From Pseudomonadota bacterium (GTDB lineage Bacteria > Pseudomonadota > Gammaproteobacteria > Burkholderiales > Thiobacillaceae): a stretch of DNA of 7,582 nucleotides. Positions 1-7,582 of this stretch are shown here, piece by piece. The notes under the pieces are model-generated. The model saw only the letters and a program-made list of their open reading frames with translations, did no database searches and was not told the DNA's origin. The stretch spans positions 1 through 7,582 of the forward strand of contig JAJYXA010000412.1 of assembly GCA_021791235.1 (NCBI GenBank). The letters are read 5' to 3'. Within the stretch, counting starts at the first letter, position 1. Each line of letters begins with the position of its first letter. The translations under genes were made by a program, and so were the position numbers.

Positions 1-1892
1 GGCACGCTATACAGCGGCGTAGCCTTGTGCCACAGCAGAATGTCCACCCCATACGGATAGCGCTGAATCGCCGAAGGCAGGGTTTCGGTAAACATGTTGG
101 AGCTCAAGGGGAACCACGGCCGCTTAGACGGGTAGGGATTCTGACCGGCGGCCACCTTGGCCTTGTATTCGCTGGTGTCCTCGTAATGGACCTTTTCGCG
201 ATTGATGATCACGCCCTTGGCCAGACCCTCGGCTTCGGGGACGCTCTCGATGTCGTAGAGCCCCTTCTTGACGTTATAGCCGCCACCGCCTGCGGTCAGC
301 CCGCCGGTCCAGTTCATGTTGCCGATCAGGAGATTGAGCAGCAGCACCGCGACGCCGTTGTAGTAGCCGTTGGGATGCTTGACGACGCCGCGGTACATGG
401 TGCTGACGGCCTGCCGGCCGTGGCTGGTGAACTCACGCGCCACCTCCACAATGCGCTGAGGCTCGATCCCGCAGATGGCCGCGTACTCTTCGACGCTGTG
501 TTCCTCGGCCGCTTCGCGCAGCAGGCGGAAAGCCGACTTCACGGCCACCCCGTTGACCGTCCCCGCGTATTCGATCTGCGCCGCTTTCACCGTGCCGGCC
601 TGTGCGGGTTTACCGCTGGCCGCATCGATGACCACGCGGTCATCCTCACCGGTAGCCTTGGGACTACCCAGCCCCGCGTCCTGCGCGCCCAGGAAATGGC
701 GCGCCTGCGGGTGCTGGGGATCGACGATGACCAAATGGCTGGCGTCGGTGTGCGAGAGTTCGCCGGCCGTCACGGCGGCGGCCTGCGTCGGATAGGAGAG
801 GTAAGCCGCGTTGTAGCGGTTGTGGTCGATGATCCAGCGGATCATCGCGAGTGCCAGCGCCCCGTCGGTACCGGGCTTGATCGGCAGCCAGCTGGCGCGG
901 TCGCCGACCACGCCGCCGCGGCTGAGCTTGGGATCGACCACGACATACTTCAGCCCATCGGCCTTGGCGCGCGCTTCGGCAGCGAATTTACCTTGAATCT
1001 GCATCGGGAAATTGGCGTCGCCGGGCTGGGTACCCCAGTAAATGATGAACTTGGCCTCGCGCACGTCCGGCTGGGTCATGTTGATGCCGGAGAAAACGTG
1101 CTGGTGGCCGATATGGTGGCTGAGTTCGCACACATTGACGTGATCGAACACATTGACGCTGCCGAAGGTGTGCGCGAAGCGTTCGACGAAGGTCATGCGC
1201 GTGCCGACCAGGCGCCCGCCCTGAACGACGAAGCCGTTGCTGCGTTTGCCGAGTTCCGGCGCATTGGCGTCCATCAATTCATCGCGCTTGGCGTAAAGGT
1301 CGCGAAAGCCGAGCACATCGAGACCCATGCTCATGGCGTCGCCGGTGTCGGCGAAGATCTTGCCGCCTTCGCTGACGTCCGCGATCAGCGTCTCCCAGCT
1401 GATCGGTTTCCATTGGCCGCTGCCGCGTGGCCCCACGCGCTTGAGGGGCACCATCACTCGGTAGGGATCGTAGGCGGTCTGGATGCCGGAGTTGCCCCGC
1501 GCGCAGACCGTGCCCGGGTGCCGCGCGGTGTCGATCAGCGGCGTCGTGCAGGAGGTGTACTCGCTCAGCGTGTTGGGGTGATAGGGGTTGCCGATGATGC
1601 GCTGAACGCGCCCGGTCTTGCGGTCGATCTTGACGCGCAAACCGCATTCGCTGTGGCACTGCAGGTCCACCGTATGGTGCAGGGTCCATTGCGGATTGGC
1701 CGTGAGTGCGTCGGTTTTCGGGTTGCGCAGCCATTCCGGGGTGTTGGCGTTGCCGTAGATCGGGTGCAGCGCCTTGCGTCCCCTGTTGGTGAAGGGCACC
1801 AGATCGACCAGCCGCTTGGAAAAACCGAGCGTGCCCGCACCCAAGCCGGCAACGGCGCTCAGAGTGAGAAAGCCTCGACGTGAGATGTCCAT
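1..1892 (-). CDS. ttrA: Molybdopterin oxidoreductase large subunit, tetrathionate reductase TtrA-like (partial, C-terminus off left edge)
   Basis: Catalytic molybdopterin-guanine-dinucleotide subunit of a periplasmic respiratory complex. It is expected to reduce tetrathionate or a related sulfur (or metalloid) oxyanion with electrons passed from the Fe-S subunit and quinol-reactive membrane anchor. The frame is open from ATG 1892 to the window edge (~630 residues, no internal stop); TtrA proteins are about 1,000 residues, so roughly a third is missing. Residues 1-25 form a Tat signal (ISRRGFLTL). The N-terminal Fe-S site reads D76-x2-C79-x3-C83 ... C130, with Asp replacing the usual first Cys. 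C255 (NVCELSHH) is the likely Mo ligand. Stretches such as LKRVGPRGSGQWKPISWETL, MIRWIIDHNRYNAAYL, DASHLVI and EYKAKVAAGQNPYPSK resemble Salmonella TtrA as I recall it. Start: AAAGG lies 8 nt upstream, and the preceding gene stops 4 bp before. A thiosulfate/polysulfide or arsenic-related activity cannot be excluded. Family confidence is high, substrate confidence moderate. Confidence 0.82.
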   Translation of the reverse strand, partial: MDISRRGFLTLSAVAGLGAGTLGFSKRLVDLVPFTNRGRKALHPIYGNANTPEWLRNPKTDALTANPQWTLHHTVDLQCHSECGLRVKIDRKTGRVQRIIGNPYHPNTLSEYTSCTTPLIDTARHPGTVCARGNSGIQTAYDPYRVMVPLKRVGPRGSGQWKPISWETLIADVSEGGKIFADTGDAMSMGLDVLGFRDLYAKRDELMDANAPELGKRSNGFVVQGGRLVGTRMTFVERFAHTFGSVNVFDHVNVCELSHHIGHQHVFSGINMTQPDVREAKFIIYWGTQPGDANFPMQIQGKFAAEARAKADGLKYVVVDPKLSRGGVVGDRASWLPIKPGTDGALALAMIRWIIDHNRYNAAYLSYPTQAAAVTAGELSHTDASHLVIVDPQHPQARHFLGAQDAGLGSPKATGEDDRVVIDAASGKPAQAGTVKAAQIEYAGTVNGVAVKSAFRLLREAAEEHSVEEYAAICGIEPQRIVEVAREFTSHGRQAVSTMYRGVVKHPNGYYNGVAVLLLNLLIGNMNWTGGLTAGGGGYNVKKGLYDIESVPEAEGLAKGVIINREKVHYEDTSEYKAKVAAGQNPYPSKRPWFPLSSNMFTETLPSAIQRYPYGVDILLWHKATPLYSV

Positions 1893-1896
1893 GGCA

Positions 1897-3093
1897 TCAA
1901 CCTTTATTGGCAACTGAGGAAGGGGTGGCTTGAGCCTCATCGCGAGGCACTGCGGCCAGCAATGCGGCCAGGATGCCCAGCGTCAACAATGCGCTCACGC
2001 CGCTGTACCAGAGCGCCTCGAAATTCAAGTGAAAGTTCAGGTAGCCGGCGCCGCTGCGATTGATGGCTTCGCCGCCGAGGAGGATGCCGATGCGGGTCGA
2101 ATAACTTCCCCACACGGCACCCGCGCAGGCCAGCGCCTGGGCTACCGGGCTGCGACCGCTCGGCGTGATCAACAGCAGGATGGGTGCGAGCAGGCCGATG
2201 GCGGTCCAGTTCCAGAAAATTTCCGCCGCGTACGGCCCCATGAACAGGTTGGCGGCACGCCCTTCCTCGATGGTGCCGAAGCGGCCGATCCACCACATCC
2301 AGCCGTACCAGACCACGGTACAGACGGCCAGGGCGATCACCGCCGTCCAGCGGTTGTTCTGCGGCGCGGCGACCCAACGAGCGGTCACCAGCCAGGCCAG
2401 CGCGGGCACGACGACGAGTTCCAACAGGGCTGCCACGCCGACGGCGCTGGCCAGGAAAAGCATGGCCTGAGCTGGGGAGTTCCATAACGGAACGCCGTGT
2501 TCGTTCATCAGGAACAGCGCCGAATACATCGGAGCGAACAAGCCCAGGAACATCATCGCAGCCAACACGATGCGCGTCCGAGCCGGACTGTCGAACAGGC
2601 TGTAATGGCGGCTACCGAAGCTGAAGATGTCGGCCAGCTTGCGCCACGCTCCGGGCAGGCGTCCGATCTTGTCGTCCAGGCGTTGCCTCGGGATGGACTG
2701 GAAGCTCAGCCACCAAGCCAGCACCAGAAATATCGGCAGCAGGATGATGCCGTACTTGATGATCGCCGTATCCCAGTTGTACCAGCCGAGGTAGTAGCCG
2801 TAGATCAGATGCCCCGGCTGTTCCACCTCGGCCAGCACATTGACGAAGCCGCCCACGATCAAGGCTGCGATCAACGGCATGGTGAAGCGGTGTTCGACGG
2901 CATCGAATTGCCCGCGCCGGACATTGATCCAGGCATTGATCGCCCACAGCAGCGCCAGCCCGCCGGCGACGCCCAGTGCCCAGGAGTAGTTGGCGAACAG
3001 GATCGAGAAGGGCCGGTCGTGCGCGACGTTGAACAACTCGTTGAGGTGCCGCAGGGGCAATACCAATTGCGGCGTGGTCAGGGGATTAGACAT
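1897..3093 (-). CDS. ttrC: NrfD/PsrC-family membrane anchor subunit, TtrC-like quinol dehydrogenase
   Basis: Integral membrane subunit (398 aa) expected to exchange electrons with the quinone pool and pass them to the Fe-S subunit. About nine hydrophobic segments are visible, at roughly residues 33-55, 70-90, 109-131, 173-196, 207-238, 249-270, 288-310, 316-340 and 357-382. This is the NrfD/PsrC layout, with no haem-binding CxxCH motif. A soluble loop (~132-172) separates segments 3 and 4. The length is somewhat above what I recall for enterobacterial TtrC (~340 aa), mostly because of that loop and the N-terminus. The start overlaps the end of the upstream Fe-S gene by 8 bp, with a strong AAGGAGG six bases ahead, so translational coupling is likely. 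NrfD anchors also occur in polysulfide, thiosulfate, arsenate and nitrite reductases; the TtrC assignment rests on the B-C-A gene order and the TtrA-like neighbour. Confidence 0.82.
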   Translation of the reverse strand: MSNPLTTPQLVLPLRHLNELFNVAHDRPFSILFANYSWALGVAGGLALLWAINAWINVRRGQFDAVEHRFTMPLIAALIVGGFVNVLAEVEQPGHLIYGYYLGWYNWDTAIIKYGIILLPIFLVLAWWLSFQSIPRQRLDDKIGRLPGAWRKLADIFSFGSRHYSLFDSPARTRIVLAAMMFLGLFAPMYSALFLMNEHGVPLWNSPAQAMLFLASAVGVAALLELVVVPALAWLVTARWVAAPQNNRWTAVIALAVCTVVWYGWMWWIGRFGTIEEGRAANLFMGPYAAEIFWNWTAIGLLAPILLLITPSGRSPVAQALACAGAVWGSYSTRIGILLGGEAINRSGAGYLNFHLNFEALWYSGVSALLTLGILAALLAAVPRDEAQATPSSVANKG

Positions 3094-4036
3094 GGCTGGC
3101 CTCCTTGCTGGTAGCGATATCCCAGTCGCCCTGATCGCGGCCCATGTCTTTTTGCTCCACGGACCAGAGGGTCGGGTTGCCAGGCAGGTTGTTCTGCAGT
3201 TCCGTCGTCAGGCCGATGTAAAACACTCTCGGCTCGTTGCCTGTGCCAGGCTTGAGCTGTTGAATGGCCTCGCTCAGCACTTGTTTGGTCATGGGATCGT
3301 TCCGGTCGTTGAGATCACCGAACTGGCGGGCGCCCCCCACGCAGGTCTCGACGCAGGCCGGCAGCAGGCCCTGGTCGACGCGCTGGGCGCAGAAGGTGCA
3401 TTTGTCGGCAGTCTCGGTGACGGGATTGATGAAGCGCGCGTCGTAGGGACAGGCGTTGACACAGGCGCCGCAGCCCCAGCACAGATCGTTGTCGATCTCG
3501 ACGACACCGTCCTGGCGTTGCCACGTCGCACCCGCAGGACAGACCTCGATGCACGAGGGCCGCTCGCAGTGGTTACACAGCCGTGGCAGGAAAGCGCGCT
3601 TGGTGTCCGGGAAGGTGCCCAGTTCCACGTCGGGTACCCAGGTGCGGAATACGCCCACGGGAATGTTGTTTTCGAACTTGCACGCCGTCGTACAGGACTG
3701 ACAGCCGATGCATTTGCGCAGATCGATCAGCATGCTCCAGCGCTTGCCGGCAAATCCGGTCTTGGCCAGATCGCCGTCCTTGGCGGTGTAGGCATACACC
3801 GAACGATCCTGCCCCACCTCATAGTCGGTCCCAGCAGGCGTCAAGGATGTCGGCAGCGCGCCGAAGGCATTGTTCCCATCGTTTGGCGCGGGAGCCGGCT
3901 GTGCCTGCGCCGATCCAGCCCCCGCAAGCACTGAAGCAGCCGTGGTTGCCACCGCGGTCGCTGTGCCCAGGGCGGCGCCGAGAAAATATCGGCGGCCAGT
4001 CCTCAAGCTGTCTCCCGGTTTGTCGTGTTCGTTCAT
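3086..4036 (-). CDS. ttrB: Tat-exported 4Fe-4S ferredoxin-type electron transfer subunit, TtrB-like
   Basis: Electron-transfer subunit (316 aa) linking the membrane anchor to the Mo subunit. It has a Tat signal (TGRRYFLGA at residues 13-21, then an Ala-rich hydrophobic stretch and probable AQA cleavage near residue 45). Sixteen cysteines form four cluster motifs: C109-x2-C112-x2-C115-x3-C119, C154-x2-C157-x4-C162-x3-C166, C186-x2-C189-x2-C192-x3-C196 and C213-x2-C216-x11-C228-x3-C232. This is the standard DmsB/PsrB/TtrB four-cubane pattern and is complete. An in-frame GTG three bases upstream (4039) would lie only 3 nt from the GGAGG at 4043-4047, whereas ATG 4036 lies 6 nt away, so ATG is preferred. 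It is the first gene of the operon, about 94 nt downstream of the predicted sigma-54 start site. The spacer between the signal and first cluster (residues 46-98) is long, and the C-terminus extends ~80 residues past the last cluster. Homologous subunits serve many CISM enzymes, so the substrate cannot be read from this gene. Confidence 0.87.
   Translation of the reverse strand: MNEHDKPGDSLRTGRRYFLGAALGTATAVATTAASVLAGAGSAQAQPAPAPNDGNNAFGALPTSLTPAGTDYEVGQDRSVYAYTAKDGDLAKTGFAGKRWSMLIDLRKCIGCQSCTTACKFENNIPVGVFRTWVPDVELGTFPDTKRAFLPRLCNHCERPSCIEVCPAGATWQRQDGVVEIDNDLCWGCGACVNACPYDARFINPVTETADKCTFCAQRVDQGLLPACVETCVGGARQFGDLNDRNDPMTKQVLSEAIQQLKPGTGNEPRVFYIGLTTELQNNLPGNPTLWSVEQKDMGRDQGDWDIATSKEASHV
3100..3106 (-). 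promoter_or_regulatory. Strong Shine-Dalgarno for the ttrC-like gene
   Basis: AAGGAGG on the minus strand sits six bases before the ATG at 3093, inside the last codons of the upstream Fe-S gene. It fixes the start of the membrane subunit despite the 8-bp gene overlap and supports coupled, near-stoichiometric synthesis of the two subunits. Confidence 0.8.
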
Positions 4037-4042
4037 CACTAT

Positions 4043-4047
4043 CCTCC
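4043..4047 (-). promoter_or_regulatory. Shine-Dalgarno deciding the ttrB-like start
   Basis: GGAGG on the minus strand is 6 nt from ATG 4036 but only 3 nt from the alternative GTG 4039, which favours the ATG. A short CTCC-AAC-GGAG inverted repeat could in principle pair part of this site, but the four-base stem is too weak to claim control. Confidence 0.65.
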
Positions 4048-4140
4048 GTTGGAGTCCTCATAATCTGCCTTGACTGCGGCGTCGAGATTTCTTGGAAAGC
4101 CCACCTGGTCAATCCGAAATTAACGGCTTGCCATACCGGC

Positions 4141-4156
4141 AGCAAAGACCGGGCCA
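4141..4156 (-). promoter_or_regulatory. Sigma-54 (-24/-12) promoter driving the ttrBCA-like operon
   Basis: The minus strand reads TGGCCCG-GTCT-TTGCT against the consensus TGGCACG-N4-TTGCW: a single mismatch, with the invariant GG and GC ten bases apart. Transcription would start near 4130, leaving a leader of about 94 nt before ATG 4036. A sigma-54 activator is encoded in the divergent unit and candidate enhancer palindromes lie 110-220 bp upstream of the start site, the usual distance. The match is seen in the sequence; activity is inferred. Confidence 0.72.
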
Positions 4157-4163
4157 ATCCCGG

Positions 4164-4176
4164 CAACACGCGGATT
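4164..4176 (-). promoter_or_regulatory. Possible IHF-binding site between promoter and enhancer
   Basis: The minus strand reads AATCCG-CGTG-TTG, one mismatch from WATCAR-N4-TTR. An A/T-rich tract (4173-4191) lies on the side where IHF sites often have one. Its position between the -24 element and the palindromes fits DNA bending at sigma-54 promoters. The consensus is loose, so this is tentative. Confidence 0.3.
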
Positions 4177-4190
4177 AAAAGAAGAAAAAT

Positions 4191-4206
4191 AGGCACGATT
4201 GATGCA
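4191..4206 (+). promoter_or_regulatory. Sigma-54-like promoter facing the sensor operon
   Basis: AGGCACG-ATTG-ATGCA keeps the GG and GC dinucleotides exactly ten bases apart and the full GGCACG block. It departs from consensus at the first base and at one T of TTGC. A start near 4217 would give a leader of about 150 nt before ATG 4369, with all three palindromes inside it. It could provide autoregulation of the sensor genes, or be a chance match; no convincing sigma-70 promoter was seen for this operon. Confidence 0.4.
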
Positions 4207-4241
4207 CTTGACTCTATGTGGCGGGGCAAATGCGGAAAATC

Positions 4242-4257
4242 GTTACCATAAAGTAGC
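4242..4257. promoter_or_regulatory. Palindrome copy 1, candidate enhancer site for the sigma-54 activator
   Basis: GTTACC-ATAA-AGTAGC, an imperfect copy of the 16-bp inverted repeat GYTACC-N4-RGTARC. It is the copy nearest the ttrB promoter, centred about 120 bp upstream of the predicted start. Confidence 0.55.
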
Positions 4258-4282
4258 TATTGCAATGGATATGTTCATAATC

Positions 4283-4298
4283 GCTACCGTCAGGTAAC
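4283..4298. promoter_or_regulatory. Palindrome copy 2, candidate enhancer site
   Basis: GCTACC-GTCA-GGTAAC, one base short of a perfect inverted repeat. Its centre is 41 bp from copy 1, close to four helical turns, so proteins bound at both would lie on the same DNA face. Confidence 0.6.
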
Positions 4299-4334
4299 AC
4301 TGATTCGCTATCAACGCCGATATCTTGATAAGCC

Positions 4335-4350
4335 GCTACCGATCGGTAGC
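4335..4350. promoter_or_regulatory. Palindrome copy 3 (perfect), candidate enhancer or operator site
   Basis: GCTACC-GATC-GGTAGC is a perfect palindrome and extends by C and G to 18 bp (4334-4351). Its centre is 52 bp from copy 2, about five helical turns. It ends 18 bp before ATG 4369 of the binding-protein gene, so occupancy might also repress that gene. Confidence 0.65.
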
Positions 4351-4368
4351 GATCGATGGGGATGCACC

Positions 4369-5217
4369 ATGACGACACGCCGACTGTTCCTGGGCGCTTG
4401 CGCCGGTCTCGCGCTCGCTCCGACTCTCGCCGCACTGCCCAGGCGCCCCGTACGCGTGGGTCTGACGCCGATCTTTCTGGGCAATCAGCACGGCTTGCTG
4501 GCCGACTGGCGCGCCTATATGGAAGCCAAGCTGCAGCAGCCCGTCGTGTTCGTGCAGCGAAACAGTTATCGCGAGACCATGGATTTGCTGCGCCTGGAGC
4601 AGATCGACTTCGCCTGGATCTGCGACTACCCCTTCGTCTACCTGCGCAAGCAGGTGCGCCTGCTCGCCGTTCCCCTGTTCAAAGGCCGCCCTTATTACCG
4701 CGCCTACTTTATCGTTCCGGCCGGGAGGCGCGATGTCACCAGCCTGCTCGATCTCAGGAACGAGATCTTCGCCTATGCCGATCCCTATTCAAATACCGGC
4801 TACCTGACGCCGCGCTATCAACTGCGCCAGTTGGGCGAAGACCCCGGTAAATTTTTCAAACGCACCTTCTTCACCTATTCCCACCTCAGCCTGATCGAAG
4901 CGGTGGCCGACGGCCTCACCGATGGCGGTTCGGTGGACAGCTACGTCTGGGACGCCCTGAGCAAGATCAGGGGGGATATTACCGGCCGCACCCGGATCGT
5001 CAGCCAGTCGCCGGAGTATGGCTTCCCGCCCTTCGTCGCGAACCATGCCGTGTCCGCGGGGAGCTTCCAAGCCATGCAGAAAATGCTGCTGACCATGGCC
5101 GACGACGGCGCGGGCAAGGTTTTGCTCGAGCGCCTCGATTTCGACGGCTTCGTCGTCGGCGACGCCAGGAACTACGAGCTGGTCGCTCGGATGATGCGCG
5201 AATTCGGCGAAGAATAG
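4369..5217 (+). CDS. PhnD-like periplasmic oxyanion-binding protein, AioX/ArxX/TtrS-sensor type
   Basis: Predicted periplasmic ligand-binding protein (282 aa) of the PhnD-like family (phosphate/phosphonate-type substrate-binding fold). The N-terminus TTRRLFLGACAGLALAPTLA is a Tat-type signal. The mature protein begins around residue 22 with the family-typical VRVGLTPIFLGNQ. Further family features are the QIDFAWICDYPFV segment (76-90), which carries the only cysteine of the mature protein (C85), and DPYSNTGYLTPRYQL. No permease or ATPase gene lies nearby; a histidine kinase follows 10 bp downstream, so a sensory rather than transport role is likely, as in AioX/ArxX, which present arsenite to a kinase, or the PhnD-like part of TtrS, which senses tetrathionate. 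The ligand is not readable from sequence. Start: GGGG at 4358-4361 is seven bases before ATG 4369, a modest ribosome site. LGAC looks like a lipobox, but the hydrophobic stretch before it is too short. Confidence 0.78.
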   Translation: MTTRRLFLGACAGLALAPTLAALPRRPVRVGLTPIFLGNQHGLLADWRAYMEAKLQQPVVFVQRNSYRETMDLLRLEQIDFAWICDYPFVYLRKQVRLLAVPLFKGRPYYRAYFIVPAGRRDVTSLLDLRNEIFAYADPYSNTGYLTPRYQLRQLGEDPGKFFKRTFFTYSHLSLIEAVADGLTDGGSVDSYVWDALSKIRGDITGRTRIVSQSPEYGFPPFVANHAVSAGSFQAMQKMLLTMADDGAGKVLLERLDFDGFVVGDARNYELVARMMREFGEE

Positions 5218-5227
5218 CAGGCGCAAA

Positions 5228-6691
5228 ATGCCGCTGCGCAGCCTGTTCAACCTGAGCTTTCGCTACAAGATTCCCTTGTGGGGAAGCGCCCTGATCGTCA
5301 CCACCGCGGTCATCACCTCGACCGCTCTGTTCATCCATAGCTACGACGACGTCAAGCGCGACATGCTGCGCAATGCCACGAGTCAGGGCCAGATCCTGGC
5401 CAAGACGCTGGTCCCGGTACTGCTCCAGGATCATGTGTGGCAAGCCTATGAAATCATCAACGCGCCCTTGCACGGCGCTAGCCGTGAAAACGCCATCCAG
5501 GCCGATACTCTGCTCGTGCTCGATGCACAGCGCCAGGTGTATGTCTCCACGCGTCCGCGGCGTTTGCCCATGCTCGCCGATTTCGCCCGGCGCTCGGGCG
5601 AGTACGCCCTCGTTGCGGCGAGCATAGCAAAGTTGGGGGATGAGACCAGCGTGATCGCGCCGGCGGCCTCAGATTATCTGTACGTCGCCACGCCCATCAT
5701 GGACGAGCAGACGCGCCTGGGCACGCTGATTCAAATATATGCCAAGAAAATCCTCTGGCCGCGCATTATCGCGAGTGCCGGACAGCTGAGCTGGGTGGTT
5801 CTGCTGGTGCTCGCCGTGCTGCTGCCGATCAACTGGTATTGGGGTCAGCGCACGGCGATGCCGCTGCTGCGCCTGACGGAGCGCATGGAGCAACTCGGGC
5901 ACGGCCTTCCCGACGAGTTGCCTGCGAAAATCTACGATTACGAAGACGAACTGGGGCGCTTGTTCCAGGCCTATAACCGGACCCTGCAGCAGTTGCGGGA
6001 GAAGGCGCTGATCGAGGGGGAGATCATCCACTCGGAAAGGCTGGTCGCGATCGGCAGGCTCGCCGCCGGCATCGCGCACGAAATCAACAATCCATTGCTG
6101 GGCATGCTCACCTCGATCAACACCTTGCGTCATCACGGCGCACCGGACGCGCGCACCAGCAAGACGCTGACGCTGCTCGAACGTGGCCTGACCCAGATCA
6201 CGGAGACCGTCGCCGCGCTGCTGGTCGAGGCCAAGGTGAATAGTCGCGACTTCGCGCCGCAGGACATCGACGACGTGCAGACCCTGATTGCACCGCAAGC
6301 CAACAAACGGCGCGTTGCCGTCGCCTGGACGGCGGCGCTGAGCGAGCCTGTTCCCCTGCCTTCCACCCTGGTGCGGCAAGTCATGATCAATCTGATCCTC
6401 AACGCCGTCCAGGCGTCGGAGGAGGGCGGCGACGTCGAAGCCGCCGTTGCGCTGAGCGGATCCGTGCTCCGGTTCGAGGTGGTCAATGGCGGCCGCAGCC
6501 TGAGCGATTCGCAGACCGAGCACCTGTTCGAGCCCTTCACCAACGCCGGCGAAAACGGTCGCGGCCTCGGGCTCTGGGTCTGCTATCAGATCGTCAAGCA
6601 ACTGGGCGGCGCCATCGCCGTCGATAGCGCGATGGCCGCAGGCGCCGGCCGCACCCGATTCGAAGTGACCCTGCCCTTTGCCGCCCGCTAG
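5228..6691 (+). CDS. Membrane sensor histidine kinase (AioS/ArxS-like position)
   Basis: Sensor kinase of 487 aa. Transmembrane helix 1 is at ~17-37, a periplasmic domain at ~38-185, transmembrane helix 2 at ~187-206, and a HAMP-like linker at ~207-255 (RTAMPLLRLTERMEQL). A HisKA dimerisation domain carries the phosphoacceptor H284 in GRLAAGIAHEINNPL, and the ATPase domain has its N-box around N392 (RQVMINLILNAVQA) and a G2 box GRGLGLWV at 444-451. The class resembles NtrB/DctB-type kinases that pair with sigma-54 activators. The G1 box is degenerate (VVNGGRSL at 418-425, where DxGxG is usual), although Asn in place of the Asp occurs in some working kinases. The periplasmic domain has no obvious ligand site of its own and probably docks the upstream binding protein. 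It starts 10 bp after that gene and ends 10 bp before the regulator, so the three are co-transcribed. The ribosome site is weak (AGG eight or so bases upstream). Confidence 0.85.
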   Translation: MPLRSLFNLSFRYKIPLWGSALIVTTAVITSTALFIHSYDDVKRDMLRNATSQGQILAKTLVPVLLQDHVWQAYEIINAPLHGASRENAIQADTLLVLDAQRQVYVSTRPRRLPMLADFARRSGEYALVAASIAKLGDETSVIAPAASDYLYVATPIMDEQTRLGTLIQIYAKKILWPRIIASAGQLSWVVLLVLAVLLPINWYWGQRTAMPLLRLTERMEQLGHGLPDELPAKIYDYEDELGRLFQAYNRTLQQLREKALIEGEIIHSERLVAIGRLAAGIAHEINNPLLGMLTSINTLRHHGAPDARTSKTLTLLERGLTQITETVAALLVEAKVNSRDFAPQDIDDVQTLIAPQANKRRVAVAWTAALSEPVPLPSTLVRQVMINLILNAVQASEEGGDVEAAVALSGSVLRFEVVNGGRSLSDSQTEHLFEPFTNAGENGRGLGLWVCYQIVKQLGGAIAVDSAMAAGAGRTRFEVTLPFAAR

Positions 6692-6701
6692 GAGTATCGC
6701 C

Positions 6702-7582
6702 GTGACCGCTTCCGCCAAGCTGCGCCTGTGCCTGATCGAAGACGACGAGATCGTCGGCGACGCGCTGGCCGAGCGCTTCGAACTCGAGGGCTATGACTGC
6801 ACCTGGTTCCGCACGGGGCGCGAGGCGCTGCTCGCTCTGCCGCGCCGCCGTTTCGATCTGGTGGTCAGCGACATCCGTCTGCCGGACATGTCGGGCGAGC
6901 AACTCTACGCGACCCTCCTCGACGAAGCCGTCGCGCTTCCGCCCTACCTGTTCATCACCGGCTACGGCGAAATCGACCAGGCTGTGCGCCTGCTCAAACT
7001 GGGCGCCGCCGATTACATCAAGAAGCCCTTCGACATCGAGGTGCTGCTGAAAAAAATCGGAGATCTGGCGACCGGGGGGGCGCCGTCCAAGGTCGAGCCC
7101 TGCCTGGGCATATCGCCCGCCATGCGCGCGCTTGAGACCTTGATCGATCGTATCAAGGATTCCGGCAGCAACGTGCTGATCACCGGCGAATCCGGGGTCG
7201 GCAAGGAAATGGTCGCCAGCGAACTACATCGCCGCGGCAGCAAGGCGGCAGACCGACCCTTCGTCGCGGTCAATTGCGGCGCGTTCGCCGCGGGCCTGCT
7301 CGAGGCGGAACTGTTCGGCTATGAGAAGGGCGCCTTCACCGGCGCCGCGCGCGCGCACAAGGGGGTGTTCGAGCAGGCCGAGGGCGGCACGCTGTTTCTC
7401 GATGAAATAGGCGACATGCCGCCAGCCATGCAGATACGCTTGTTGCGTGCCATTCAGGACCGGCGCATCACCCACGTTGGCGGCGAGATACCGATACCGG
7501 TCAGCCTGCGGCTGGTTTGCGCCACGCACCGCGATCTCAAGCAAATGGTGGAGGGCGGTGACTTTCGCGAGGATCTCTATTA
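6702..7582 (+). CDS. NtrC-family sigma-54-dependent response regulator (partial, C-terminus off right edge)
   Basis: Enhancer-binding activator of sigma-54 RNA polymerase; 293 residues are visible and the helix-turn-helix lies beyond the edge. The receiver domain (residues 6-122) has an acidic pocket E13-D14-D15, phosphoacceptor D57 (VVSDIRLPDMSG), T86 and K108. The AAA+ domain begins near residue 135 with Walker A GESGVGKE (162-169), the sigma-54-contacting GAFTGA loop (210-215) and Walker B GGTLFLDEIGD (228-238); all are intact. The GTG start at 6702 follows TAGGAG by seven bases; that ribosome site overlaps the stop codon of the kinase gene. Its presence explains the sigma-54 promoter found ahead of the Mo-enzyme operon, and the palindromes upstream are its likely targets (inference). 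Known TtrR regulators are LuxR-type, so this is closer to AioR/ArxR in architecture. Confidence 0.9.
   Translation, partial: MTASAKLRLCLIEDDEIVGDALAERFELEGYDCTWFRTGREALLALPRRRFDLVVSDIRLPDMSGEQLYATLLDEAVALPPYLFITGYGEIDQAVRLLKLGAADYIKKPFDIEVLLKKIGDLATGGAPSKVEPCLGISPAMRALETLIDRIKDSGSNVLITGESGVGKEMVASELHRRGSKAADRPFVAVNCGAFAAGLLEAELFGYEKGAFTGAARAHKGVFEQAEGGTLFLDEIGDMPPAMQIRLLRAIQDRRITHVGGEIPIPVSLRLVCATHRDLKQMVEGGDFREDLY

What the first reader, a model, noticed from the sequence alone, without database searches (positions are those of the whole stretch)
3086..7582. Binding-protein/kinase/sigma-54 trio divergent from a tetrathionate-reductase-like operon
The right-hand unit has the XSR layout (free PhnD-like protein, kinase, NtrC-type activator) known from arsenite-responsive AioXSR and ArxXSR. 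The left-hand unit has the B-C-A order and TtrA-like large-subunit motifs of tetrathionate reductase. In enterobacterial TtrSR the PhnD-like sensor is fused to the kinase and the regulator is LuxR-type. The combination here is either a split, sigma-54 version of tetrathionate sensing or an unassigned Mo enzyme for another oxyanion under an AioXSR-like switch.
Basis: partly seen in the sequence, partly recalled or inferred. Interest (0 to 1): 0.7.

Follow-up and report, generated by a model that had tools for sequence, protein, structure and literature searches.

The report
Arsenite-switched relative of tetrathionate reductase
A bacterium carries a molybdenum respiratory enzyme that resembles tetrathionate reductase but belongs to an unstudied sister group and sits under a three-protein switch of the type that senses arsenic, so it is probably an unrecognised arsenic-processing enzyme rather than a sulfur one.

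Summary
In detail: B-C-A genes of a membrane-anchored molybdenum enzyme (3-4039, minus strand; A cut by the window edge) diverge from a binding protein X, kinase S and sigma-54 activator R (4369-7580). X is an AioX/ArxX-type sensor: 58% identical to Sulfuricella ArxX, 39% to the crystallised arsenite binder AioX, six of seven pocket residues identical, including Cys106. The shared promoter region has a strong -24/-12 site before B and three palindromes fitting the published AioR box (GTTN10AAC); such palindromes occur at 14 of 24 XSR loci and 0 of 27 controls. The large subunit is not classic TtrA: it lies in a fully supported sister clade and carries a different active-site signature in 33 of 33 rows (C-E-x-S-H-H versus C-G-x-x-x-R in 19 of 19 TtrA-side rows). 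Ten of 19 clade loci with usable flanks have X, ars or aio genes nearby, against 0 of 13 classic ttr loci; on enterobacterial plasmids the operon adjoins arsRDA in 8 of 9 copies. Best reading: an uncharacterised arsenic oxyanion enzyme, probably an arsenite oxidase, under an arsenite-sensing XSR switch. Ligand, substrate and direction are inferred, not shown.

The parts
3..1940 (-). A: N-terminal 646 aa of the catalytic Mo subunit, TAT signal, TtrA-sister clade 'W'
   Evidence: active-site signature
1897..3093 (-). C: NrfD-like membrane anchor, 398 aa, 8 predicted hydrophobic segments
   Evidence: no Pfam/NCBIfam hit
3086..4039 (-). B: 4Fe-4S subunit (16 Cys) with twin-arginine start
4141..4157 (-). 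Candidate sigma-54 -24/-12 promoter TTGGCCCGGTCTTTGCT, about 100-120 bases before B
   Evidence: 20.5 of 21.5, 0 of 200 shuffles as high
4190..4206 (+). Weaker sigma-54-like site TAGGCACGATTGATGCA facing X (unsure)
   Evidence: 18.0 of 21.5
4242..4257 (.). Palindrome 1, GTTACCATAAAGTAGC (11 of 12 of GYTACCN4GGTARC)
4283..4298 (.). Palindrome 2, GCTACCGTCAGGTAAC (12 of 12)
4335..4350 (.). Palindrome 3, GCTACCGATCGGTAGC (12 of 12)
4369..5217 (+). X: periplasmic AioX/ArxX-type oxyanion-binding sensor, 282 aa
5228..6691 (+). S: membrane histidine kinase (HAMP, HisKA, HATPase_c), 50% identical to Sulfuricella ArxS
6678..7580 (+). R: NtrC-type response regulator, receiver + AAA with GAFTGA, 3' end outside the window; 61% identical to Sulfuricella ArxR

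Best explanation
X binds arsenite in the periplasm and, with kinase S, leads to phosphorylation of R. R binds the palindromes at 4242-4350 and activates RNA polymerase with sigma-54 at 4141-4157, switching on B-C-A-D-moaA. The product is a Tat-exported A-B pair anchored by the NrfD-like C subunit, from an uncharacterised clade (W) that is sister to tetrathionate reductase. It acts on an arsenic oxyanion. The direction I commit to is arsenite oxidation to arsenate, with electrons passing through B to C and the quinone pool, or in sibling operons to a co-encoded HiPIP or cytochrome c. Shown from sequence: gene set and order, family membership of X/S/R, pocket residues, promoter and box motifs, clade and active-site signature of A, arsenic neighbourhood of part of the clade. 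Inferred: ligand, substrate, direction, electron path.
For: X: best solved relatives are AioX (E 5e-56), then ArrX. The pocket matches AioX at Y88, C106, Y131, S161, H192, D210, with S163 to T, a change also in Sulfuricella ArxX; the PhnD row lacks the Cys. AioX and ArxX bound arsenite and none of the other ligands tested, tetrathionate and thiosulfate among them, and these sensors bind the substrate of their cognate enzyme (PMC5908839, passages). Window X lies inside the 45-row group (SH-aLRT 98) that holds AioX NT-26 and the ArxX rows. A sigma-54 site scoring 19 or more lies before B in 4 of 5 W loci with XSR divergent from B and in 0 of 14 other W loci. The palindrome is at 14 of 24 XSR loci (W 3/5, Aio 2/6, Arx 2/3, PSR-like 5/7, other 2/3) and at 0 of 27 controls; it fits the AioR consensus GTTN10AAC (PMC5335332, passages). 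A is outside the TtrA clade, which contains a Proteus TtrA over the curated cut-off with TtrS over its cut-off beside it; the active-site signature differs. Ten of 19 W loci with usable flanks are arsenic-linked versus 0 of 13 classic ttr loci. Eight of nine plasmid copies adjoin arsRDA. L012 Thiomonas has the operon beside aioBA-XSR. For oxidation: the arsenite-type sensor, HiPIP downstream in 13 of 27 W loci, and co-location with arsenite efflux genes.
Against: I found no substrate test for any W enzyme. Nine of the 19 W loci with usable flanks show no X or ars gene in the DNA held. In the own MAG (81% complete) ACR3 was not found, ArsB-family hits were weak and HiPIP was not found; that last test is weak, because the same Pfam model recognises only 2 of 5 of the sibling HiPIP proteins scanned. 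L012 would have two arsenite oxidases side by side. ArrX keeps the same pocket yet binds arsenate, so pocket residues alone do not set the ligand (PMC5908839); no ArrX sequence was in my X tree, and NT-26 AioX is its only row with measured binding that I know of. The wider TtrA family contains a proposed archaeal arsenate reductase (PMC10100899). Ten of 24 XSR loci lack strict palindromes upstream of X: L021, L024, L155 (NT-26), L135, L138, L012, L157, L011, L134, L133. L026 lacks the sigma-54 site.
Confidence: 0.65

Rival explanations
1. Same arsenic switch, opposite direction: the enzyme is an alternative respiratory arsenate (or antimonate) reductase fed by quinol through C.
For: The TtrA/SrdA family includes a proposed archaeal arsenate reductase (PMC10100899; Pyrobaculum ttrA mentioned in PMC9751042) and a selenate reductase. 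Tetrathionate reductase itself is a reductase. The plasmid unit occurs in Citrobacter arsenatis and in Enterobacter Sb-9 from tailing mud. That NrfD-anchored enzymes commonly take electrons from quinol is recalled.
Against: X scores higher with AioX (193 bits) than with ArrX (141) and groups with AioX/ArxX rows (no ArrX row included); HiPIP and cytochrome c neighbours; a periplasmic arsenite producer inside an arsenite-resistance operon would work against it (inference).
Confidence: 0.25
2. A true tetrathionate reductase (or thiosulfate:tetrathionate oxidoreductase) that has come under an arsenite-responsive switch.
For: BCA order and TAT on B are the gene-level marks of Ttr (PMC2500031, passages). 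NCBIfam's best model is TtrA. Carriers such as Thiomonas are, from recall, thiosulfate oxidisers.
Against: W rows score 619-768 bits with the TtrA model against 1077-2039 for six classic rows; different residues at Mo-Cys +1, +5 and at 500-501 in 33 of 33 versus 19 of 19; TtrA paralogue in the same MAG (L086); ars and aio contexts.
Confidence: 0.07
3. The enzyme handles a related compound (thioarsenate, antimonite/antimonate, selenium oxyanion) and arsenite is only a cross-signal.
For: The wider family is catalytically versatile (PMC10100899). XSR modules sit beside several Mo enzyme types (Aio, Arx, two PSR-like types, W), so sensor and substrate need not match exactly.
Against: ars and aio neighbours of the operon point to arsenic itself.
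Confidence: 0.1

Closest known systems
ArxXSR-arxB'ABCD (Sulfuricella denitrificans plasmid pSCD, L010)
   Same: Free AioX-type X, kinase, NtrC-type regulator, divergent from a Mo enzyme with NrfD anchor, TorD and moaA; X 58%, S 50%, R 61% identical
   Different: Catalytic subunit is ArxA, in the ArrA/ArxA clade, order B'-A-B-C-D; the window enzyme is in the TtrA half of the tree and ordered B-C-A-D
AioXSR-aioBA (NT-26 and Paraburkholderia dioscoreae)
   Same: Same three-component switch type and same pocket; box at the Paraburkholderia locus, not found by the strict pattern upstream of NT-26 aioX
   Different: Enzyme is Rieske-type AioBA; X only 39-43% identical
Tetrathionate reductase TtrBCA / TtrSR
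   Same: BCA order and TAT signal on B; nearest characterised relative of A
   Different: A lies outside the TtrA clade and lacks its signature; sensor is a free X, not the PhnD-kinase fusion of TtrS
Enterobacterial plasmid operon B-C-A-D in ars clusters (Citrobacter arsenatis LY-1 plasmid unnamed2, Enterobacter ludwigii pEL-ars2)
   Same: Same W clade, 51% identical A, same B-C-A-D layout
   Different: No X gene in the DNA held; divergent from arsR-arsD-arsA-arsB-arsC and presumably under ArsR

Membership tests
AioX/ArxX/ArrX sensor subfamily (XSR) | Closest solved relative is AioX, above PhnD/PtxB | tested here: met
   AioX 193 bits, ArrX 141, PtxB 42
AioX/ArxX/ArrX sensor subfamily (XSR) | Pocket Y88 C106 Y131 S161 S163 H192 D210 | tested here: met
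   six identical, S163 to T as in Sulfuricella ArxX; residue list from PMC5908839
AioX/ArxX/ArrX sensor subfamily (XSR) | X, S, R adjacent and beside a molybdoenzyme | tested here: met
   adjacent; of 14 X places of 40% identity or more in 369 genomes, 12 have a Mo enzyme in the DNA held around them, L133 has none detected, L140 is a 3.1 kb contig
AioX/ArxX/ArrX sensor subfamily (XSR) | Binds an arsenic oxyanion | not testable with these tools
   needs calorimetry
AioR/sigma-54 regulon | GTTN10AAC-type palindrome and -24/-12 promoter | tested here: met
   half sites in the window are GTT/GCT and AAC/AGC, so none of the three copies has both published half sites exactly
Tetrathionate reductase TtrA | Score above the NCBIfam NF011567 cut-off (1750) | tested here: not met
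   701.9 for full-length P0121. Weak on its own: of six classic-clade rows only Proteus (2039) passes, the others score 1077-1497
Tetrathionate reductase TtrA | Inside the clade of classic TtrA | tested here: not met
   sister, both sides 100 SH-aLRT; clade anchored by Proteus TtrA
Tetrathionate reductase TtrA | BCA order and TAT signal on B | tested here: met
   feature from PMC2500031
Tetrathionate reductase TtrA | TtrS beside it (PhnD domain fused to the kinase) | tested here: not met
   free X, kinase without that domain; TtrS-type kinases found in the 4 classic loci whose kinase was scanned (one over cut-off)
ArxA/ArrA | Catalytic subunit in the ArrA/ArxA clade | tested here: not met
Arsenite oxidase (any kind) | Arsenite turnover | not testable with these tools
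   no assay of this clade found in searches; most subscription papers are not held

The most novel reading that the evidence does not exclude
The W clade is a further family of arsenic respiratory molybdoenzymes beside Aio, Arx and Arr: a TtrA-type arsenite oxidase tied to arsenite-sensing XSR switches, an aio island and ars clusters, plasmid-borne ones included. The deeper TtrA-like enzymes of Nitrospirota, Myxococcota, Chloroflexota and Bacillota, which mostly share the C-E-x-S-H-H signature and often have an X gene nearby, would belong to the same arsenic group.
Probability: 0.42. Interest if true: 0.78.

Novelty: new variant of a known kind. Interest (0 to 1): 0.62.

Why it matters
Several members are named tetrathionate reductase subunit A in public data, so surveys that rely on such names would count them as sulfur respiration. 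If they are arsenic enzymes, arsenic redox capacity is undercounted where they occur, and an arsenic function lies on enterobacterial plasmids, two of them typed conjugative. The case also shows the arsenite-type switch beside distinct catalytic families, and the signature found here gives a simple sequence test to separate TtrA from this group.

Tried and rejected
Considered and rejected: PhnD uptake protein (kinase and regulator follow, not permease and ATPase; Cys106 present); split TtrS sensor; ArxA or ArrA assignment of A. The own-genome PF12974 hits on other contigs showed no match to window X. AioX with tetrathionate reductase gave no paper; Thiomonas + tetrathionate reductase + arsenic + molybdopterin gave none. 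The Thioalkalivibrio candidate for alternative arsenite oxidation is Soe-like (PMC6620896, passages). The AlphaFold model of A (mean pLDDT 63, active-site segments under 50) was too poor to place residues and was not used; the X model (pLDDT 72) was not searched further. Roles of ArrA active-site residues are recalled and were not used.

Limits and rows dropped. L051, L059 and L069 were left out of the deep/TtrA-side table. L106 (Pseudomonas, classic ttr) has an annotated ArsR/SmtB-family regulator after A, which my thresholds did not count as ars. L059_A (656 aa) was dropped from the tree. 'Classic' is my label, anchored by Proteus. The 'deep' set is not one clade. The gap at 227 in TtrA depends on the alignment, since five TtrA-side rows keep Arg residues close by; the other signature positions do not. 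The palindrome pattern was formed from the window, so the window's own count is no independent test; the sigma-54 weights are ad hoc and the cut at 19 was chosen after seeing the scores. Fisher tests ignore relatedness.
Full report
What is there. The window encodes six genes in two divergent units. Leftward: B (4Fe-4S, twin-arginine start), C (NrfD-like, 8 hydrophobic segments), A (Mo subunit, cut at the window edge). Rightward: X, S, R. The own assembly (2.75 Mb in 312 contigs, 81% complete) carries the region on two contigs, one of which continues A-D-moaA, D being TorD-like.

The switch. X belongs to the AioX/ArxX/ArrX sensors: AioX of NT-26 is the best solved match, Sulfuricella ArxX is 58% identical, and the tree puts window X in the 45-row group that holds AioX and the ArxX rows (no ArrX row was available). 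The pocket named in PMC5908839 (passages read) is kept at six of seven places, the seventh being S163T as in Sulfuricella ArxX; Cys106, which the PhnD row lacks, is present. S and R match Sulfuricella ArxS and ArxR at 50% and 61%. R has GAFTGA.

The promoter. Before B lies TTGGCCCGGTCTTTGCT (4157 to 4141), 20.5 of 21.5 on an ad hoc -24/-12 score, reached by none of 200 shuffles. Sites of 19 or more lie before B in 4 of 5 W loci with XSR divergent from B (L026 fails) and in 0 of 14 other W loci, whose highest score is 16.5. Between this site and X are three palindromes of the form GYTACC-N4-GGTARC. The same palindrome (11 of 12 or better) lies within 450 bases before X at 14 of 24 XSR loci (W 3 of 5, Aio 2 of 6, Arx 2 of 3, PSR-like 5 of 7, L133/L137/L140 2 of 3), at 0 of 5 loci of the deeper TtrA-like set, 1 of 5 distant X loci, and at 0 of 27 control regions. 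It fits the AioR consensus GTTN10AAC given in PMC5335332 (passages read), with GCT or AGC at some window half sites.

The enzyme. Full-length A (P0121) scores 702 bits with NCBIfam TtrA (cut-off 1750), 184 with PhsA and 108 with ArrA. The cut-off alone is a weak test: of six classic-clade rows scanned only Proteus passes (2039), the others score 1077-1497; five W rows score 619-768. In a 78-row maximum-likelihood tree (quick search, LG+G4, SH-aLRT) A lies in a 33-row clade, here W, with support 100, sister to a 19-row TtrA side with support 100; ArrA, ArxA and PSR-like enzymes are a separate group. W rows come from Thiomonas, Rhodopila, Ferrovaceae and other Pseudomonadota, Verrucomicrobiota, vibrios, a mine drainage metagenome and enterobacterial plasmids. 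Residues around the Mo-cysteine separate the two sides: W 33 of 33 have C255-E256-x-S258-H259-H260 and Y500-R501-G502; TtrA-side rows (14 classic, 5 of Desulfobacterota or Bacillota) have C-G-x-x-x-R and H-G-G in 19 of 19. R227 is also 33 of 33 against a gap in 19 of 19, but that position is alignment-dependent. The deeper TtrA-like set (16 rows, not one clade) mostly shares the W signature: E256 15 of 16, H260 15 of 16, R501 16 of 16. The own MAG has, besides the W gene, a gene on the TtrA side (L086, 1077 bits).

The neighbourhood. Of 27 W loci tabulated, 19 have usable flanks; 10 of these 19 are arsenic-linked: X at the window, L021, L024, L026, L031 and L012 (in L012 the XSR belongs to an adjacent aioBA cluster), ars genes at L008, L015, L016, L022. 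Nine show neither. Classic ttr loci: 0 of 13 (Fisher p 0.0016), though one, L106, has an annotated ArsR/SmtB-family regulator. The four classic loci whose kinase I scanned (L099, L100, L105, L153) have TtrS-type kinases, one over the cut-off. Eight of nine plasmid copies have the operon next to arsRDA over 8.1 kb; the ninth, E. coli G5, matches without that part. An X gene is near 11 of 23 deeper-set loci, five of them with S and R as well, but 0 of 5 Bacillota loci of the TtrA side. Thirteen of 27 W loci have a HiPIP gene just after D; four have a divergent PSCyt1-type cytochrome. The own MAG shows no HiPIP or ACR3; the Pfam HiPIP model finds only 2 of 5 sibling HiPIPs, so the first absence says little.

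Is the trio promiscuous? In 369 sampled genomes of the class, 18 have an X match. Of the 14 places at 40% identity or more, 12 have a Mo enzyme in the DNA held around them (Aio, Arx, PSR-like, W), one (L133) has none detected and one (L140) lies on a 3.1 kb contig; the five weaker matches showed no Mo enzyme with my queries. The trio sits beside different catalytic families but nearly always beside a molybdoenzyme.

Mechanism and direction. Shown: architecture, sensor class, operator and promoter motifs, clade, signature, context. Inferred: arsenite as ligand, arsenic as substrate, oxidation as direction. Oxidation is favoured because AioX and ArxX bind what their enzyme metabolises (PMC5908839), because sibling operons carry HiPIP or cytochrome c, and because an arsenite producer would harm an arsenite-resistance operon. 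Reduction remains open, since the wider family includes a proposed archaeal arsenate reductase and a selenate reductase (PMC10100899, passages), and that paper mentions a seemingly novel lineage sister to this family, which may or may not be W.

Print status. AioX with tetrathionate reductase: no paper. AioX with molybdoenzyme: three papers, two read in passages (PMC5908839, PMC6549141), one seen only in the listing. Tetrathionate reductase with arsenite: 22 papers listed, of which I read passages of four. Tetrathionate reductase with arsenate respiration: 5 listed. AnrA: one paper, passages only; the original AnrA paper is not held. The Citrobacter TSA-1 paper I saw only as a citation. I found no description of this combination, but most subscription papers are outside the library.

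Noticed in passing
L011, L132, L134, L136, L142-L144: XSR trios also sit beside another uncharacterised Mo enzyme type (PhsA/PSR-like; B-C-A-D order in Azoarcus KH32C plasmid pAZKH). L011, L134 and L136 have ars genes nearby. For L011 and L142 the best NCBIfam score is PhsA, below cut-off. A second candidate arsenic enzyme family.
   Followed up: partly
L008:10223-15618, L009, and plasmid hits H42-H50: Enterobacterial plasmids carry a W-type molybdoenzyme operon, in 8 of 9 copies next to arsRDA; annotated as DsrO/hypothetical/molybdopterin-dependent oxidoreductase.
   Followed up: partly
L038, L042, L046, L050, L052, L055, L056, L057, L061, L064, L067: Deeper TtrA-like enzymes in several phyla have an AioX-like gene within 10 kb, five of them with kinase and sigma-54 activator as well (L042, L046, L056, L057, L061).
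   Followed up: partly
L014, L015, L018, L023 (divergent from B) and 13 W loci after D: Small PSCyt1-type cytochrome c and HiPIP genes recur at the operon, suggesting a periplasmic electron partner.
   Followed up: partly
G000:C167 (L086): The own MAG has a separate gene that groups with classic TtrA; the MAG shows no TtrS over cut-off.
   Followed up: partly
L145-L149: Distant X-like proteins (32-35% identity) that keep most of the AioX pocket but showed no Mo enzyme beside them with my queries; L149 has Gly in place of the pocket Cys.
   Followed up: no
L015:8183-9505: Downstream of HiPIP: carboxymuconolactone-decarboxylase-like, ArsR and glyoxalase-family genes in a row, possibly an arsenic detoxification tail.
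   Followed up: no
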